From a bacterium 336/3 (lineage in GTDB: Bacteria; Bacteroidota; Bacteroidia; Cytophagales; Thermonemataceae), in assembly GCA_001281695.1 (NCBI GenBank), contig LJIE01000001.1, forward strand, positions 812,107-876,106: 64,000 bases of DNA. Reading direction: 5' to 3'. The notes beneath the pieces are model-generated. The model saw only the letters and a program-made list of their open reading frames with translations. It did not search any database and was not told where the DNA came from. Shown piece by piece: positions 5,601 through 24,378 of the stretch. Both the position numbers and the translations under genes were made by a program. The number at the start of each line of letters is the position of its first letter. Position 1 is the stretch's first letter.

Positions 5601-5893
5601 ATATTCGAGATAAAGTTTTAGAATATAGAGGAGGATTTTTACAACAAATAGACCCAATATTCCAAGACCCATTATTACCTGCTAATGCATTAGACTATAG
5701 AACACAGTTTCTTGCTCCTAGCAAACATCTATTTGGCATACGTTTTGGCACTTACTATTTTAATATTGCAGTAATGTGGGCAATGTCAATTATATTGTAT
5801 TTTACATTATACTATGAGACATTTAAAAAAGGCTTTAATATTTCTCTAACATCTTTGTTCTCAAAGAAAAATAAATCAAAGGTGAAAAAGTAA
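2684..5893 (+). CDS. ABCG-type ABC transporter with N-terminal TerB-like and FHA-like regions
   Basis: This 1069-residue fusion has a TerB-like helical N-terminus (about 1-170) and a beta-rich region (about 180-275) that resembles a degenerate FHA domain. An ABC ATPase follows, with Walker A GASGAGKTT near 306, signature ISGGQRKR near 414 and Walker B VMFLDEP near 435. A CPSCGN pair near 516 may bind zinc. Hydrophobic segments between about 613 and 783 and a last one near 1026-1046 form an ABC2-type permease. A long soluble segment (about 800-1020) lies between them. ATPase before permease in one chain is the half-transporter layout of ABCG proteins. It is 57 bp behind the SiaC-like gene and in the same orientation, which suggests phospho-control of transport. 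Substrate and direction are unknown. Confidence 0.88.
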   Translation: MSEEVLDALTKVFAITTLQDGGTSPKEQSFVEEYFQEVLAQDAIAGYIAKYKEYYEKLWADFGIRVAENEKEIQPGEEEGAPKKITDEERAFQKFSVKLGGLFRKEIAPEKESKLVLSQKILILVRMLELLASDNRITKRRLEVVETSAEYLVKDKKLYKVTSDFVFKTAQELIGQENILTVSSVYIPRTDTIKHIQVERLDGEMIFLRLPDANMYFVKYTGNENIKLNDFLMKPNKIYQFTSGSIIRTQAGNAFYFSDIIANFTSGQQRQKLSFNAVEIEYKFKNGNLGLRGVTVAEGAGNLIGIMGASGAGKTTLLNVLAGLEKPSKGQVLLNGIDIHGETGEAQGVIGYVAQDDLLIEELTVYQNLYYNTKLCFKSFSEKELDERVMKTLEDLGLAHIKHLKVGNVLNKTISGGQRKRLNIALELIREPAVMFLDEPTSGLSSKDSENVLDLLKELSAKGKLIFVVIHQPSSDIFKMFNKLIILDTGGYQAFYGNPVDAVMYFKKQDNQLKADEGQCPSCGNVNPEQIFDIIEARTIDEQGKYTNQRKKTAIQWNELFNKNFSDKVRAVEEHKEKPPKALDLPNKIKQTVIFTVRDFLAKAGNRQYVAINLLEAPLLAFLLAFIIRFENDPLTRGYTYRYNDNMPAYILICVLVALFMGLTVSAEEIIKDRKIQRRESFLNLSRHSYLSSKLIILFTLSAIQTLSFVVIGNAILEIKSMNMLYWFVLFTVSCFANILGLNISATFNSVVTIYITIPLLLIPQMILSGVIFNFDKLNQLVSDRGQVPILADLMVSRWGFEAIAVEQYKNNLYQKPYFEFEKEESIADYRRNFWVDAMRNTLTKTNNLFNNQSDSAKRIVKSNLDLLANEVRREKLIDAQTAYSKANRPKLYQYANIAADLAVGRYTPETGEKLKGYLDSVSNYYRDRFTAANKLKNDNQEYREQQVKGYKLDVYKNKYFNESLSDLVRNANIRDKVLEYRGGFLQQIDPIFQDPLLPANALDYRTQFLAPSKHLFGIRFGTYYFNIAVMWAMSIILYFTLYYETFKKGFNISLTSLFSKKNKSKVKK

Positions 5894-5966
5894 AAATATT
5901 ATTATAATTTTATTACATTTGTCTAAAGAAAAATTCACTAAGTCGTTATATAAAAATATATTGGTT

Positions 5967-6860
5967 ATGAAAAAAATACTTGCTACAGCAATTTTAAGTT
6001 TTTCTTTATATGCCTGTGGAGGTGATGCAGATGTGTCTGATGTAAAAAAAGATGACAGCACATCAAAACAATCCTCTAAAGCTGCTATTTCTCCTGAAGT
6101 AATTAAAAGTTTTGTTGACAAAATACCAAGCCCAATGGTTATTTCTTCACTTATCAAAGAAATGGATGTAGAGTATGACCAAGGTTTGTTGAATTCCATA
6201 GATAACGAATCGAAATATAATAATGATTATCGAAGAGCTCTTAACTTGGGTATTTATAGCACTGATTTAGGCTATGCAAATATTTATGAAAAAACACAAG
6301 ATGCTACTAATTTACTTGTAGGAGTAAAAGATATGGCAGATGCTCTTTCTATTGGTCAGTATTTTGAATTCGAAAAAATTAAAGAATTAGCTAAAAGTAG
6401 TGATAAATTAGATGAGCTTTTGCGTGTAACAGAAGAAAACCTACAAGAAGTAAATAATCGCTTGCAATCCAATAATAGAAGTGATATGACTGTTTTGATT
6501 ATCACAGGTGGTTGGGTAGAAGTAATGTACTTAGCATGTAATGTAGCAAAAAAGAAACGTAATAAAGATTTAGAAACAACTATTGCAGACCAAAAAATAG
6601 TATTGAAGCAACTAGTAGAATTATTAAACTATTATGATTCAACACCTAAAATGAAAGCTCTACATGATGAATTGGTTGAATTAGAAAAGATGTTTGCTGA
6701 AATCAAAATTACTCTTGTGAAAGGGGAAGACAAACAAGAAACAAAAAATGAAACAATGGTAGTAGAGCAAGGAGATAGAGAAGAAGCAGAAATGACACAA
6801 GAAAACCTTGATAAAATTACTGCAAAAATATCTACAATCAGAAACAAAATTGTAAATTAA
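5967..6860 (+). CDS. Predicted lipoprotein, paralogue A of a three-member family
   Basis: The start is placed at ATG 5967, which gives a lipoprotein signal with lipobox LYAC and acylated Cys near residue 17; the longer frame from TTG 5919 would put 16 residues before the signal. The mature 297-residue chain is helical and charged. Motifs shared with the genes at 7400 and 30315 are ALNLGIYSTDLGYAN, a GGWVE segment in the middle, and IADQK. No known domain was recognised. Membrane anchoring on the periplasmic side or at the outer membrane is inferred. It opens a four-gene same-strand run with intergenic gaps of 32-33 bp, 73 bp after the ABC transporter gene. Confidence 0.8.
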   Translation: MKKILATAILSFSLYACGGDADVSDVKKDDSTSKQSSKAAISPEVIKSFVDKIPSPMVISSLIKEMDVEYDQGLLNSIDNESKYNNDYRRALNLGIYSTDLGYANIYEKTQDATNLLVGVKDMADALSIGQYFEFEKIKELAKSSDKLDELLRVTEENLQEVNNRLQSNNRSDMTVLIITGGWVEVMYLACNVAKKKRNKDLETTIADQKIVLKQLVELLNYYDSTPKMKALHDELVELEKMFAEIKITLVKGEDKQETKNETMVVEQGDREEAEMTQENLDKITAKISTIRNKIVN

Positions 6861-18061: not shown

Positions 18062-19405
18062 ATGGAAATAGGAAAGAATTTTTATCAGTATCAAATACAA
18101 TCACTTATTGCAGAAAGCCCCATTGCTCGTAATTGGGCAGGTAGGCATCATTCTTTGAATAGAAATGCTCGTATCAAGCAAATGAAAACACATTTGCTAC
18201 AAACTGAAGCCCAAAAATTACAATTAAGAACATTGGCTACACAAGGAGCAGCTTTGCAACATAGTCATATTCAGCTATTATACGATTACTTAGAAAATTC
18301 ACAAGGGATATTTTTTGTTTATGAACATATAGATGGGGTTACATTGGATAAATTCATCCAGAAAAACCCAACAGAACAAATTAGAAAAGAAATTTTTATT
18401 CAGATTTTAGATGCTTTGGCTTACAGCCATCGGAAAGGAATTTACCATCTGAATTTAGACCCACAAAACATCATTATTAATTCTAAAAATCAGGTTTATG
18501 TTACTGATTTTGGGTTTTCTGTATTCAGTGAGCCCAATGCAAATGCCTTTGCCTCTCCCGAATATCTGCAACAAGGCTATACAGATGCAAGAAGTGATAT
18601 TTTTTCATTAGGAAAAACCTTGAATTATCTATTTCCAAATCCACCTCAAAATTTACAAAAAATAATAGCAAAAGCCTGTGATGCAGATTCTTACAAACGT
18701 TACCAGACTTGTGAATCCATGAAAGCAGATCTGCTATCTGAATTTTTCATGATTTCGCATCAAGAAAAACCAGTTCAGAAAAATAAATATATGCCTTTTG
18801 TATTTGGAGGAGCAGGTTTAGTAGCTACTATTGCTTTTATTTTACTGATCAAAGGGCTATTGGCATCCAATGATAAAAAGCCTAAAGAAGTTAGTTTTAA
18901 AGGAAATTCACCAGTAGTGATTAAAGATACAGTAGACTATACTAAAAAAGCAGAATTGAAAGAAGAAGAAGAAAAGCAAGATGACGAAAAGAAAACACCT
19001 GAAGAAAAGAAAAAGGATAGTTTAGATAAAATTAAGAAAGACAAAAAAGAAGCCAGAGAAAAACGTGAGAAAGAAAGAAAAGAGCAAGCTTTCAAAAAAG
19101 TAATTGTGGATGGTCAATTTGTGAGCAATCAGTTAGGAGATTATAAAATCAATGTAGAGATATTCAATAGTAATAAAGATATGGAACTTCAAAATGTAGT
19201 TTTGTTGGTTTCGTACTACAATGGAGCAGGTGATGTAGTTGAAAAAGAAGAAAAAACACTTCCTAAACTTGGGGCAAACGAAGCTACATCTGTAGAAATT
19301 ACAAAAAAAGTAAATGCAACTCGTTTTACTTGTAAAATCAAAGATGCAACCCTTCCTCCTGACCCGAATGCTCCCAAAGATGATGAGGAGGAAGAAGAGA
19401 AATAA
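18062..19405 (+). CDS. Membrane protein with Ser/Thr pseudokinase domain
   Basis: A 447-residue protein with an N-terminal protein-kinase-like domain (about 10-235), one membrane segment (about 243-265), a highly charged Lys/Glu spacer (about 290-345) and a C-terminal extracytoplasmic domain. The kinase fold is clear: a beta-3-like lysine in ARIKQM (K39), DFG at 149-151, SPEYL and the SDIFSLGKTL helix. The catalytic loop reads HLNLDPQN at 129-136, so the HRD aspartate is Asn131 and the usual lysine is Asp133. The glycine-rich loop is also absent. It is probably a non-catalytic pseudokinase that binds a partner or nucleotide. The C-terminus ends in an acidic stretch. Confidence 0.8.
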   Translation: MEIGKNFYQYQIQSLIAESPIARNWAGRHHSLNRNARIKQMKTHLLQTEAQKLQLRTLATQGAALQHSHIQLLYDYLENSQGIFFVYEHIDGVTLDKFIQKNPTEQIRKEIFIQILDALAYSHRKGIYHLNLDPQNIIINSKNQVYVTDFGFSVFSEPNANAFASPEYLQQGYTDARSDIFSLGKTLNYLFPNPPQNLQKIIAKACDADSYKRYQTCESMKADLLSEFFMISHQEKPVQKNKYMPFVFGGAGLVATIAFILLIKGLLASNDKKPKEVSFKGNSPVVIKDTVDYTKKAELKEEEEKQDDEKKTPEEKKKDSLDKIKKDKKEAREKREKERKEQAFKKVIVDGQFVSNQLGDYKINVEIFNSNKDMELQNVVLLVSYYNGAGDVVEKEEKTLPKLGANEATSVEITKKVNATRFTCKIKDATLPPDPNAPKDDEEEEEK

Positions 19406-21346: not shown

Positions 21347-21370
21347 AAAAAGCTCCTTATGGAGCTTTTT
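21347..21370. terminator. Hairpin terminator between convergent genes
   Basis: A perfect 10-bp stem (21347-21356 with 21361-21370) and a TTAT loop, A-rich on the left and T-rich on the right, lie between the coiled-coil gene and the alpha/beta hydrolase gene, whose stop codon begins at its last base. Confidence 0.88.
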
Positions 21371-22233
21371 TATTTTAAAAAACTCAAAATAATATTTTGA
21401 ATGGTCTTGTAGCTACTCCAAACTATAAAATGGTCTTTATCTTTTAGAATAGTTGTTTCTGTTGGGGCATTCTGAAGCATCTTTTTGCAAAAATCAACAT
21501 TTTCAACAGGAACAAAAGTATCTTTATCTCCATGAATTAAATGCACAGGACATTTAATTTTTTCCCAAAATGGAAGCATTTTTTCAAGTTCTTTACGCAA
21601 AGGCATAATTTCTTGGTTGGAAACTTTGAATGAAGGAGGCATCAACCAACGAATCGGAATCCAATCCAAAATAGGTCTAAACCATTCTTTAGGTTCTAGT
21701 TCAGGAGAACAAGAGCCAGCAATAATAATTAAACCATCCACAAAATCTGGATAATCCATTGCCAAACGAGCCACCAAAGGTCCACCCAAAGAATGACCTA
21801 TCAGAACTATATTTTTGTCCTGACCATATTTTTCAAGAATTGGCTTTATCTGCTTTGCTTGTTTTTCCAAAGAACCTTCCGATCGCCCATAATCACTATC
21901 TCCATAGCCCGCTCTATCAATGGAACATAAAATAGCCTGACTGCTCAATGTGCTATCAGATAAATAATCTATCCATGCACTCGAAGAGCCTGGCGAGCCA
22001 TGTACAAAAATAAGAACATGTTTCTTATCATATCCAACCTGTGTATAATGAATATTTCTTTTTTCTACTTGGGATGTAAAGAATTGAATCTCTTTTTGTC
22101 CTTTATTTTGAAGATGCTCTCTTTGCTTCTTTTCAGACATTCTAAATGAAAGACAACCTGAATGAGCAAAAACAACCCAAACAATTAGAAAATAAATGAA
22201 AAGCATTCGCTTGCGAAAAAATATTTTCTTCAT
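21370..22233 (-). CDS. Alpha/beta hydrolase, membrane-anchored or exported
   Basis: A 287-residue protein with an N-terminal hydrophobic segment (about 11-25) ending in SGC at 25-27, a possible but imperfect lipobox. The hydrolase core shows the oxyanion segment VHGSPGSSSAW near 78-88, the nucleophile elbow GHSLGG with Ser148, an HGDKDTFVP loop for the acid and DHF near the end for the catalytic His. The triad is therefore complete. It probably acts in the periplasm on an ester or related bond; the substrate is unknown. It is divergent from the peptidase-serpin run. Confidence 0.85.
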   Translation of the reverse strand: MKKIFFRKRMLFIYFLIVWVVFAHSGCLSFRMSEKKQREHLQNKGQKEIQFFTSQVEKRNIHYTQVGYDKKHVLIFVHGSPGSSSAWIDYLSDSTLSSQAILCSIDRAGYGDSDYGRSEGSLEKQAKQIKPILEKYGQDKNIVLIGHSLGGPLVARLAMDYPDFVDGLIIIAGSCSPELEPKEWFRPILDWIPIRWLMPPSFKVSNQEIMPLRKELEKMLPFWEKIKCPVHLIHGDKDTFVPVENVDFCKKMLQNAPTETTILKDKDHFIVWSSYKTIQNIILSFLK

Positions 22234-22306
22234 AAAAAAATATATTCTTTAGAACGTAAGGATGTATTATATTTGTATATCATTTTCAAACTAAACAAAA
22301 ATTTGT

Positions 22307-23152
22307 ATGAAAGCAAAGTTGTTTTTTATGTTACTGTTGGTTTTTATGGGTTACAAAGGACAAAGCCAAGATTATGAATCAAGCTCCCAACGATTAAAGA
22401 AAACATTAGGGAAAGGCTATAATATAGAAATCTATACAGGTGATTTTGAGGCAAGTAGTTATGCCAAACAATGGTGTACTTGGAAAACACTTTCAGAAGA
22501 AGATGGGTTTGCTCTGGACAGATATGGAAATTTATTAATCGAAGAATGGAAAAAATACCCAATAGAATGGATAAAAAAATCAAAGTTAAAGGCAATTGCT
22601 CTTGTCAAAAAACTTGCAGTTGGCTCTCAGTATAGAGCGGGCATGCCAGATGCTTATGGTGAGGTATTGTATTTAGATATTGAATATTTGGGTAGTTCAG
22701 GAGAGAAATATATTAGGGAAACAATACACCATGAGTTTTATCATATGCTTGAAGAGCATTATTTTGGAGATTTCTATTTCAAAGACCCTAAATGGATGGT
22801 ATTAAATCCTCCTGAGTATCCTTATATTAGTACACAAGGGGCAAATGCCTATACAGATGGTGTGTACACACCCAAAGACCATCCTGTATCAGGTTTTGTG
22901 AGTGCATACTCAAGATATGCCTTAGAAGAAGATAAAGCAGAAGTTTATTCTTATATCATGGCTACTCATCGTTATCAGCAGGTCAAAGAATGGATAAAAG
23001 AAGATACTTATTTGAGTAAAAAGGTGAAGTATATACAAGACTTTATAGTTAAAAATTGTCCTGAAATGGATGAGAAATGGTTTGAGAAAATTCATGTAAC
23101 CAACCAAAAGAAAATGAAAACTTCTATTAAAATCCCTAAAAAGAAGAAATAA
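22307..23152 (+). CDS. Exported putative zinc metallopeptidase
   Basis: A 281-residue protein with a signal peptide ending near GQSQ (about residue 21). A zinc-peptidase motif HEFYH (HExxH) lies at residues 142-146 in TIHHEFYHMLEEH, and a conserved acidic helix EEDKAEVYSYI near 205-215 could give the third ligand, as in gluzincins. The basic C-terminus ends in KKKK. It is likely periplasmic or secreted. A TATATTTG -7-like element at 22268-22275 may drive it. Its stop overlaps the serpin start by one base (TAATG), so the two are coupled. Substrate unknown. Confidence 0.75.
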   Translation: MKAKLFFMLLLVFMGYKGQSQDYESSSQRLKKTLGKGYNIEIYTGDFEASSYAKQWCTWKTLSEEDGFALDRYGNLLIEEWKKYPIEWIKKSKLKAIALVKKLAVGSQYRAGMPDAYGEVLYLDIEYLGSSGEKYIRETIHHEFYHMLEEHYFGDFYFKDPKWMVLNPPEYPYISTQGANAYTDGVYTPKDHPVSGFVSAYSRYALEEDKAEVYSYIMATHRYQQVKEWIKEDTYLSKKVKYIQDFIVKNCPEMDEKWFEKIHVTNQKKMKTSIKIPKKKK

Positions 23153-24378
23153 TGATAAGAAGGTATTTATGGATGTCATTGCTTTTTAATGTAAATTTGG
23201 TATATGGTCAATTCTATAAAGAAAATAACGATACATCTTTCATTCGTATAGCAGAAAGCAATAATACTTTTGCTTTGAGTTTGTATAAAAATATTATTAA
23301 AGAAAATGATAAAAATATAGTTTTTTCTCCATTGAGCTTTTCAACAGCATTCTCTATGCTTTATGCTGGGAGTAATAAAAATACAGAAAAGGAAATAAAA
23401 AGTGTTTTTGGGTTTCAGGAAAATGACTCTTTGAAACATCATAAGGCTTATGGAGAATTTTTAAATAAATTACAAAAATATCAAAATGAAAATCTACATA
23501 TAGCCAATGCTTTATGGTTACAAAAAAAGTATAGTTTCTTGCCTAGCTACCAGAGAATTATAGAGCAATATTATAAATCTAATATTTTCTCAGTAGATTT
23601 TTCTGATATCAATACTCACAAAAAAATTAATGATTGGGGAAAAAAGAATAGTAAGGGAATATTAGAAAAAATACTCCAAAGCTATAATCCTTTATTTAAA
23701 GTAGTGATTAATAATATAGCTTTATTTGATGCAAAATGGGAAAAGACTTTTAATACAAGCAACACTAAAAATGATATATTCTATACCCAAGATGCACAGG
23801 TATCTGTGCCATTTATGCAAGAGAATCAAGATGTACTTTATAGAAATAAAGACTCTATAATCACATTAGGACTTTTTTATAAAGATTATAAAGCTACAAT
23901 GATTATTATGATGCCTCTCAAAGAGAAAAAAATGGAACACTTGGAGAAAAATATAGAAGAATATTGGAAAAAAACATCTGAAAGTTTTGATAATGAAAAA
24001 ATCATGTATATGAAGTCAGACTTAAAGTTTGAATCAGCGTTGGTAAGATTACCCAAATTTAAAATAAATACAAAACTAGCAGATCCTATTTCAACAATGA
24101 TAAAAATGGGAGTAAGAGAGGCATTTAATGATAATGCAGACTTTTCTCGAATTACAGAAAAAAAAGCTGGTTTACAAGTACAAGTTCTTGAGCATATCTG
24201 TGAAATGGAATTTGATGAAACAGGAACACGAATAGCTGCTGCAACAAGTATTGCTTTGGTAGAAAGAGGAGGTTCAAGGTTACAGGTGAAAATAGACAGA
24301 CCCTTTATTTTCATAATTGTAGATAATGAGTCAACAAATGTCATGTTTATGGGTAAAGTAAATAATCCAAGTAAATAA
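23152..24378 (+). CDS. Serpin family protease inhibitor, exported
   Basis: A 408-residue serpin with a signal peptide ending near VYGQ (residue 20). The N-terminal serpin core shows NIVFSPLSFSTAFSMLYAGS. The hinge of the reactive centre loop is seen as EFDETGTRIAAATS (about 353-366), with the Gly/Thr and small alanine residues required for loop insertion in inhibitory serpins. The scissile-bond region ALVERGGSR follows, and the C-terminus has the usual DRPFIFII and VMFMGKV. It probably traps serine or cysteine proteases outside the cytoplasm. It is translationally coupled to the upstream metallopeptidase gene; purM follows 6 bp later. Confidence 0.92.
   Translation: MIRRYLWMSLLFNVNLVYGQFYKENNDTSFIRIAESNNTFALSLYKNIIKENDKNIVFSPLSFSTAFSMLYAGSNKNTEKEIKSVFGFQENDSLKHHKAYGEFLNKLQKYQNENLHIANALWLQKKYSFLPSYQRIIEQYYKSNIFSVDFSDINTHKKINDWGKKNSKGILEKILQSYNPLFKVVINNIALFDAKWEKTFNTSNTKNDIFYTQDAQVSVPFMQENQDVLYRNKDSIITLGLFYKDYKATMIIMMPLKEKKMEHLEKNIEEYWKKTSESFDNEKIMYMKSDLKFESALVRLPKFKINTKLADPISTMIKMGVREAFNDNADFSRITEKKAGLQVQVLEHICEMEFDETGTRIAAATSIALVERGGSRLQVKIDRPFIFIIVDNESTNVMFMGKVNNPSK

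What the first reader, a model, noticed from the sequence alone, without database searches (positions are those of the whole stretch)
22307..24378. Exported metallopeptidase coupled to an exported inhibitory serpin
The stop and start codons overlap (TAATG), so the HExxH peptidase and the serpin are made together, and both carry signal peptides. The serpin hinge (GTRIAAATS) looks inhibitory. Serpins target serine or cysteine proteases, so the pair may be a defence or protease-control set rather than enzyme plus own inhibitor.
Basis: partly seen in the sequence, partly recalled or inferred. Interest (0 to 1): 0.55.

Follow-up and report, generated by a model that had tools for sequence, protein, structure and literature searches.

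The report
Secreted metallopeptidase beside a divergent serpin
Two probably secreted bacterial proteins, a zinc protein-cutting enzyme and a serpin-type protease blocker, have overlapping genes in one genome, but the pairing was not seen in the relatives examined and each protein belongs to a known kind, so it looks like a local arrangement rather than a conserved system.

Summary
In detail: genes at 22307-23152 (HExxH peptidase) and 23152-24378 (serpin) share one base (TAATG), and both proteins begin with export-signal-like segments. The peptidase matches Pfam PF15890; its predicted structure resembles 4l7a, the lethal factor catalytic domain and the Pro-Pro endopeptidases, with the same Tyr-(7)-Glu spacing. 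The serpin is a full PF00079 protein with predicted P1-P1' Arg-Gly, as in its two nearest relatives. Its hinge is abnormal: P12 is Ile where all 66 comparable rows have Ala, and published work ties P12 Ala to inhibition. The pair is not conserved in what was searched. In a sample of 331 genomes of the order, four others carry a close peptidase and none of the four has a serpin match. The nearest serpins have no peptidase relative beside them. Neither gene was found in the seven other genomes of the family. Of 57 peptidase-type loci elsewhere, one has a serpin, 4.6 kb away on the other strand. The serpin also ends 6 bases before a purM-like gene, so tight spacing says little. Best reading: two independently working exported proteins stacked in one transcription unit. 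New member of a known kind; low interest.

The parts
22307..23152 (+). Gene of the exported zinc metallopeptidase (281 aa, PF15890; predicted lethal factor/PPEP-like fold)
22307..22366 (+). Signal-peptide-like N-terminus of the peptidase (about residues 1-20; cleavage site not predicted by a program)
   Evidence: sequence by eye; hydropathy
22730..22744 (+). HExxH (H142, E143, H146)
   Evidence: H142, E143, H146 in 14 of 14 aligned proteins
22907..22909 (+). Tyr201, proposed oxyanion-stabilising Tyr
   Evidence: Tyr in 12 of 14; analogy to PPEP-3 Tyr190
22928..22930 (+). Glu208, proposed third zinc ligand
   Evidence: Glu in 14 of 14; analogy to PPEP-3 Glu197
23150..23154 (+). TAATG stop/start overlap
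23152..24378 (+). Serpin gene (408 aa, PF00079)
23152..23208 (+). Signal-peptide-like N-terminus of the serpin (about residues 1-19; cleavage site not predicted by a program)
   Evidence: sequence by eye; hydropathy
24217..24246 (+). Serpin hinge P17-P8 (residues 356-365), with Ile361 at P12
24265..24270 (+). Predicted scissile bond P1-P1' Arg372-Gly373
   Evidence: counted from P17; same residues in L166 and L167
24385..25551 (+). purM-like (AIR synthase-related) gene 6 bases downstream; part of the tight cluster but not of the proposed pair

Best explanation
Two exported proteins of known kinds are stacked in one transcription unit ahead of a purM-like gene in this one genome and act independently. 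The peptidase is a single-zinc (HExxH + Glu) endopeptidase with the fold of the PF15890 / lethal factor / Pro-Pro endopeptidase group. After export it would cut protein substrates outside the cytoplasm, with His142, His146 and Glu208 as zinc ligands, Glu143 as base and Tyr201 stabilising the transition state. The serpin is a divergent bacterial serpin whose loop offers Arg372-Gly373 to trypsin-like (Arg-specific) proteases. Its most likely job is to shield the cell envelope from foreign serine proteases, but the bulky Ile at P12 makes it probable that it inhibits inefficiently or behaves largely as a substrate. Shown: both families, the overlap, no conserved pairing in the genomes searched, conservation of the catalytic residues, the hinge anomaly. 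Inferred: export, one transcript, catalysis, P1, the shielding role, and independence of the two.
For: Families. Fold and active-site spacing. Neither gene found in the 7 other genomes of the family. Four order genomes with close peptidases (255-306 bits) are not among the 101 of 331 genomes with a serpin match, and the 11-12 kb stretches around those four peptidases hold no serpin. Nearest serpins L166/L167 have no peptidase relative beside them. In 40 serpin loci a relative of the peptidase turned up only in the window's own copy. Nearest relatives of the two genes lie in different families of the order: peptidase in G572/G559, family f19; serpin in G515/G545, family f4. Close spacing is not rare in the window and continues into purM.
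Against: A one-base overlap often goes with coupled translation, and both products appear to share an export route. Sampling is limited: a family of 8 genomes, 331 genomes of the order, one genome per species, and flanks of only 1.5 kb for most serpin loci. One distant peptidase relative (L105) has a serpin 4.6 kb away, and another relative (L099) is fused to a trypsin-like domain, a hint that this kind of peptidase may work near serine proteases.
Confidence: 0.62

Rival explanations
1. A lineage-specific protease-control set: the peptidase processes or activates a trypsin-like protease, or acts on outside proteins, while the co-translated serpin stops Arg-specific proteases that would otherwise damage the peptidase or the envelope.
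For: TAATG overlap; both export-type; predicted P1 Arg shared with the nearest serpins; a peptidase relative fused to a trypsin-like domain (L099); a serpin 4.6 kb from another relative (L105).
Against: No pairing elsewhere; four order genomes with a close peptidase have no serpin match; the five trypsin-family matches of the own genome have GNSGG motifs of HtrA type (type label recalled); the hinge anomaly.
Confidence: 0.15
2. The serpin is not an inhibitor: with P12 Ile, loop insertion is slow or blocked, so it acts as a substrate or bait, or has a binding or storage role, unrelated to the peptidase.
For: P12 Ile against Ala in 66 of 66 rows; 46 of 61 strongly conserved columns kept, fewer than in any other row except four fragment or truncated ones; P12 Ala strongly conserved in inhibitory serpins (PMC7946950 passages); antithrombin P12 Ala to Thr loses activity (PMC3268027 passages).
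Against: P17, P15, P14, P11-P9 and P8 fit the consensus; the Arg-Gly bond is shared with L166/L167, which suggests selection on the reactive site; breach-type Trp and shutter-type His look present (positions located, roles recalled).
Confidence: 0.2
3. Enzyme plus own inhibitor, in the manner of the Tannerella KLIKK protease/potempin operons.
For: Adjacency and a shared export-type signal; precedent for secreted protease-inhibitor operons (PMC7296668 passages).
Against: Serpins trap serine or cysteine proteases through an acyl-enzyme, which metallopeptidases do not form (established mechanism). Four close peptidases occur in genomes without a serpin match.
Confidence: 0.03

Closest known systems
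Bacteroides caccae BACCAC_01431 (PDB 4l7a), a putative zinc-binding metallo-peptidase like Pfam PF15890
   Same: The window protein scores 33.4 bits against PF15890, over its cut-off of 25.6; 4l7a is the best fold match, Z 14.4 over 222 residues
   Different: 14% identity; substrate unknown; that 4l7a itself is in PF15890 was not tested here
Pro-Pro endopeptidases PPEP-1/2/3 and the anthrax lethal factor catalytic domain (M34-type; the label is recalled)
   Same: Fold by VIA-align (Z 9.3-10.4 for PPEPs, 10-13 for lethal factor); HExxH + Glu; Tyr exactly 7 residues before the Glu ligand as in PPEP-3 Tyr190/Glu197, and a Glu tandem like PPEP-1 Glu184-185 (PMC12828418 passages)
   Different: No Pfam model of that family at E up to 1; 10-18% identity in the rows shown; Foldseek E-values weak, 0.01 or more; specificity unknown
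LIC13305 family lipoprotein of Leptospira (NF047804)
   Same: 107.5 bits along residues 2-243; 27% and 26% identity to two Leptospira plasmid proteins
   Different: Far under the equivalog cut-off of 250, which the Leptospira protein from L047 passes with 346.3; no lipobox Cys here
Bacterial serpins such as chloropin and miropin; the engineered conserpin
   Same: Full serpin domain; chloropin also uses a P1 Arg (Arg383; PMC10090351 passages)
   Different: P12 Ile in the hinge; 32% identity or less to the Bacteroidota serpins compared
KLIKK protease / potempin operons of Tannerella forsythia
   Same: Secreted protease gene next to an inhibitor gene
   Different: There the inhibitor gene precedes the protease and is specific to it (PMC7296668 passages); here the order is reversed, the inhibitor type would not act on a metallopeptidase, and the pairing was not found elsewhere

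Membership tests
PF15890 Peptidase_Mx1 | Profile score over the curated cut-off | tested here: met
   33.4 against 25.6 bits, matching profile positions 122-207 of 240 only
PF15890 Peptidase_Mx1 | HExxH plus a downstream Glu ligand | tested here: met
   H142, E143, H146 and E208 in 14 of 14 aligned proteins; that E208 binds zinc is inferred
LIC13305 family (NF047804) | Equivalog cut-off of 250 bits | tested here: not met
   107.5 bits
LIC13305 family (NF047804) | Lipoprotein signal | tested here: not met
   No Cys in residues 1-40 of the peptidase
M34-type (lethal factor / PPEP) peptidases | Shared fold | tested here: met
   Predicted model, Z 10-13 to lethal factor chains and 9.3-10.4 to PPEPs; Foldseek alone is weak
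M34-type (lethal factor / PPEP) peptidases | Tyr 7 residues before the Glu zinc ligand | tested here: met
   Y201/E208; Tyr in 12 of 14, Glu in 14 of 14; PPEP-3 Tyr190/Glu197
M34-type (lethal factor / PPEP) peptidases | Sequence-profile match to that family | tested here: not met
   Only PF15890 and PF18958 among Pfam hits at E up to 1
M34-type (lethal factor / PPEP) peptidases | Pro-Pro cleavage (PPEPs only) | not testable with these tools
   Needs an assay
Serpin (PF00079) | Full-length serpin domain | tested here: met
   292.1 bits against 27, profile 1-370 of 370
Inhibitory serpins | P15 Gly and P14 Thr/Ser | tested here: met
   G and T
Inhibitory serpins | P12 Ala and small residues at P11-P9 (P17-P9 ExGTEAAAA; PMC8233489 passages) | tested here: not met
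   P12 Ile; P11-P9 are Ala
Inhibitory serpins | Covalent complex with a target protease | not testable with these tools
   Needs an assay
Conserved protease-inhibitor operon (potempin type) | Pairing kept across genomes | tested here: not met
   0 of 4 order genomes with a close peptidase have a serpin match

The most novel reading that the evidence does not exclude
A lineage-specific two-protein switch: a lethal-factor/PPEP-fold metallopeptidase is translated together with a serpin whose loop has been re-tuned (P12 Ile, Arg-Gly bond) to be cut rather than to trap, so that the serpin serves as a spring-loaded reporter or bait, either for the peptidase itself or for a trypsin-like protease that the peptidase controls, as the fusion of this peptidase kind to a trypsin-like domain in L099 would suggest.
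Probability: 0.05. Interest if true: 0.6.

Novelty: new member of a known kind. Interest (0 to 1): 0.2.

Why it matters
If the pair were a set it would be a metallopeptidase-serpin operon, for which the listings of the paper searches made here showed no precedent (titles and starts of abstracts only, open-licence papers only). As it stands, two smaller points may help specialists. A group of secreted PF15890/LIC13305-like peptidases carries the PPEP-type active-site spacing and occurs sparsely in several phyla. And a natural bacterial serpin with P12 Ile offers a simple test of the rule that P12 must be Ala.

Tried and rejected
Conserved pairing: rejected as far as searched. Single-sequence searches with the peptidase found only the own copy in the phylum sample, 1 of 395, and nothing in genome contigs, although an alignment or profile later found relatives; so single-sequence misses must not be read as absence. 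The family model NF047804 matched 16 of 395 phylum genomes, the 15 others with 19-38 bits only.

Insertion into a conserved neighbourhood: could not be tested. Around nuoF and the purM-like gene, six stretches from four relatives (two of the same genus, two of the same family) share no other clear neighbour with the window, so no empty site can be read.

Phage or mobile origin: no match to the peptidase in phages or viral contigs; no relative of the serpin confirmed in viral contigs; three Leptospira plasmid records match the peptidase. Defence system: no PADLOC match for either protein.

Enzyme plus own inhibitor: rejected on mechanism and because close peptidases occur without a serpin match.

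Serpin structure prediction: not run; the fold is not in doubt and a model would not tell inhibitor from substrate.

Full report
What is there. The window lies in contig C1 of a 4.7 Mb genome. A genome of the same class, G392, has a contig of the same length (337,872 bases) as a Rhinopithecimicrobium faecis record, so the host is very probably in class Bacteroidia (class of that species recalled). Upstream and divergent is an alpha/beta hydrolase (21370-22233). Downstream, 6 bases after the serpin stop, begins a purM-like gene, which is present in 7 of 8 genomes of the family. A TAnnTTTG pattern (Bacteroidota -7 type, recalled) lies at 22268 before the peptidase; two more, at 23192 and 23265, lie inside the serpin gene. 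With so short a motif this is weak.

The peptidase. Pfam gives PF15890, Peptidase_Mx1, 33.4 bits over the cut-off of 25.6. NCBIfam gives LIC13305 lipoprotein at 107.5 bits, well under its equivalog cut-off of 250, and TIGR04549 weakly. No solved structure is close in sequence (best E 0.1). An alignment-based scan of species genomes found 57 loci. Eight of them (L099-L106) are near relatives by score, from records titled bacterium RS_15_20, Armatimonadetes, Alcanivoracaceae, Gammaproteobacteria, Bacteroidetes GWA2_30_7 (two contigs), Obscuribacterales and Melainabacteria. The other 49 score weakly and are mostly titled as Bacteroidota; those that phmmer recovered mostly have an HEFTH motif. In the order sample, 10 of 331 genomes match: the own one, four strong (255-306 bits: G497, G588, G559, G572) and five weak (20-30 bits). 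The closest are G572 and G559 at 43% identity.

The AlphaFold2 model (11 sequences, mean pLDDT 83.0, pTM 0.80) matches 4l7a best (Foldseek E 1.1e-5; VIA Z 14.4, 222 residues, rmsd 4.9). Next come lethal factor chains (Z 10-13) and the Pro-Pro endopeptidases (Z 9.3-10.4). Foldseek's own E-values for these two groups are weak, 0.01 or more. In 14 aligned proteins His142, Glu143, His146 and Glu208 never change, and Tyr201, seven residues before Glu208, is Tyr in 12 of 14 (Phe and Ser in the others). In PPEP-3 the oxyanion Tyr190 and the zinc ligand Glu197 are also seven apart, and PPEP-1 has a Glu184-185 tandem (PMC12828418, passages), like Glu207-208 here. So an active zinc endopeptidase of this fold is well supported, but its substrate is not known. 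[quoted passage not shown] that is a model, not evidence, for the role here.

The serpin. PF00079 covers the whole protein, and the nearest solved sequence is conserpin (E 4.3e-53). The genome has two other full serpins and one sub-threshold match. From 75 serpin rows gathered, duplicates, contained rows and the window's own copy were dropped, leaving 68 others, a few of them fragments. The hinge reads P17 E, P16 T, P15 G, P14 T, P13 R, P12 I, P11-P9 AAA, P8 T. P12 is Ala in all 66 rows that have a letter there; P13 is Glu in 63 of 66. The consensus for inhibitory serpins is ExGTEAAAA with x E/K/R (PMC8233489, passages). Ala at P12 is called strongly conserved among inhibitory serpins (PMC7946950, passages), and antithrombin P12 Ala to Thr loses activity through polymerisation (PMC3268027, passages). 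The window serpin agrees with 46 of 61 columns conserved at 85% or more; only four fragment or truncated rows agree less. Counting from P17, P1-P1' is Arg372-Gly373. The two nearest serpins (G515 and G545, 32% and 30%) have Arg-Gly at the same place and a similarly short loop, though with Val at P14. The three form a clade (SH-aLRT 99, quick tree, with a long-branch warning for the window row). The scissile bond thus looks kept while the hinge has changed.

Is the pair a system? Neither gene was found in the seven other genomes of the family, one of them only 81% complete (and again 48, 49). In the order sample of 331 genomes, 101 have a serpin by this query; none of the four with a strong peptidase is among them, while four of the five with a weak peptidase match are. 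The 11-12 kb around the four strong peptidases hold no serpin, and 27 serpin loci of the order (flanks 1.5 kb; five of these places also fetched larger) hold no peptidase relative. These 27 are not all the order's serpin places; the rest were not fetched. In an earlier set of 40 serpin loci (31 with 1.5 kb flanks; L059 and L082 are the same gene; one is the window's own) only the window's own locus has the peptidase. Serpins as such are common: 73 of 395 genomes of the phylum sample, of which only the best 30 places were fetched. Of the 57 peptidase-type loci (flanks up to 6 kb, some cut by contig ends), only L105 has a serpin, 4.6 kb away on the other strand (PF00079 225.1 bits); its sister L106 shows none in the part held. 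The nearest relatives of the two genes come from different families of the order. Of six stretches around two marker genes in four relatives, none shows a neighbourhood clearly shared with the window, so chance stacking is plausible, and 6 of 33 same-strand neighbour pairs in the window are within 10 bases or overlap in a rough gene call.

Result in the other direction. One near relative, L099, is a 608-residue protein in which this peptidase domain is followed by a trypsin-like domain over both Pfam cut-offs, with His, Asp and Ser motifs visible in the sequence. A peptidase kind fused to a serine protease in one genome and overlapping a serpin gene in another is suggestive of a shared pathway. 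It is one case each, and the five trypsin-family matches of the own genome have GNSGG motifs of the HtrA type (type label recalled).

Literature. No title or abstract start in the listings reports a metallopeptidase-serpin operon in bacteria; and one search found no paper. Only open-licence papers were searched. LIC13305 appears once, in a table of recombinant proteins (PMC7683387, passage). The KLIKK/potempin operons are the nearest precedent for a secreted protease next to its inhibitor (PMC7296668, passages); miropin of the same species is thought to prevent damage from secreted serine proteases (PMC4404884, passages).

Verdict. The proposed set is not supported by conservation. The most likely state is a lineage-specific stack of two independently working exported proteins, with an open question about whether the serpin inhibits at all.

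Noticed in passing
18062-19405: Ser/Thr kinase-like protein (PF00069, 82.7 bits) whose catalytic loop reads HLNLDPQN, with Asn where the HRD Asp is expected, while DFG is kept: a likely pseudokinase with a membrane segment (motif reading by eye, recalled). Thirty-two PADLOC kinase-type models match it, as they might many such kinases.
   Followed up: no
L099:4407-6233: Relative of the window peptidase fused to a trypsin-like serine protease domain (PF13365, PF00089) in a MAG titled bacterium RS_15_20.
   Followed up: partly
L105:1-1212 and 5863-6573: In an Obscuribacterales MAG a serpin and a relative of the peptidase lie 4.6 kb apart on opposite strands; not seen in the part held of the sister L106.
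   Followed up: partly
L102:5211-6765: Tandem copies of the peptidase in a Gammaproteobacteria MAG; the upstream copy has Ser in place of the proposed catalytic Tyr.
   Followed up: no
L017:4705-6021: Another serpin of the same genome, lipoprotein-like, with Glu instead of Gly at P15, so also a doubtful inhibitor; the third, L016:5492-6670, has a standard hinge and by count a P1 Lys.
   Followed up: no
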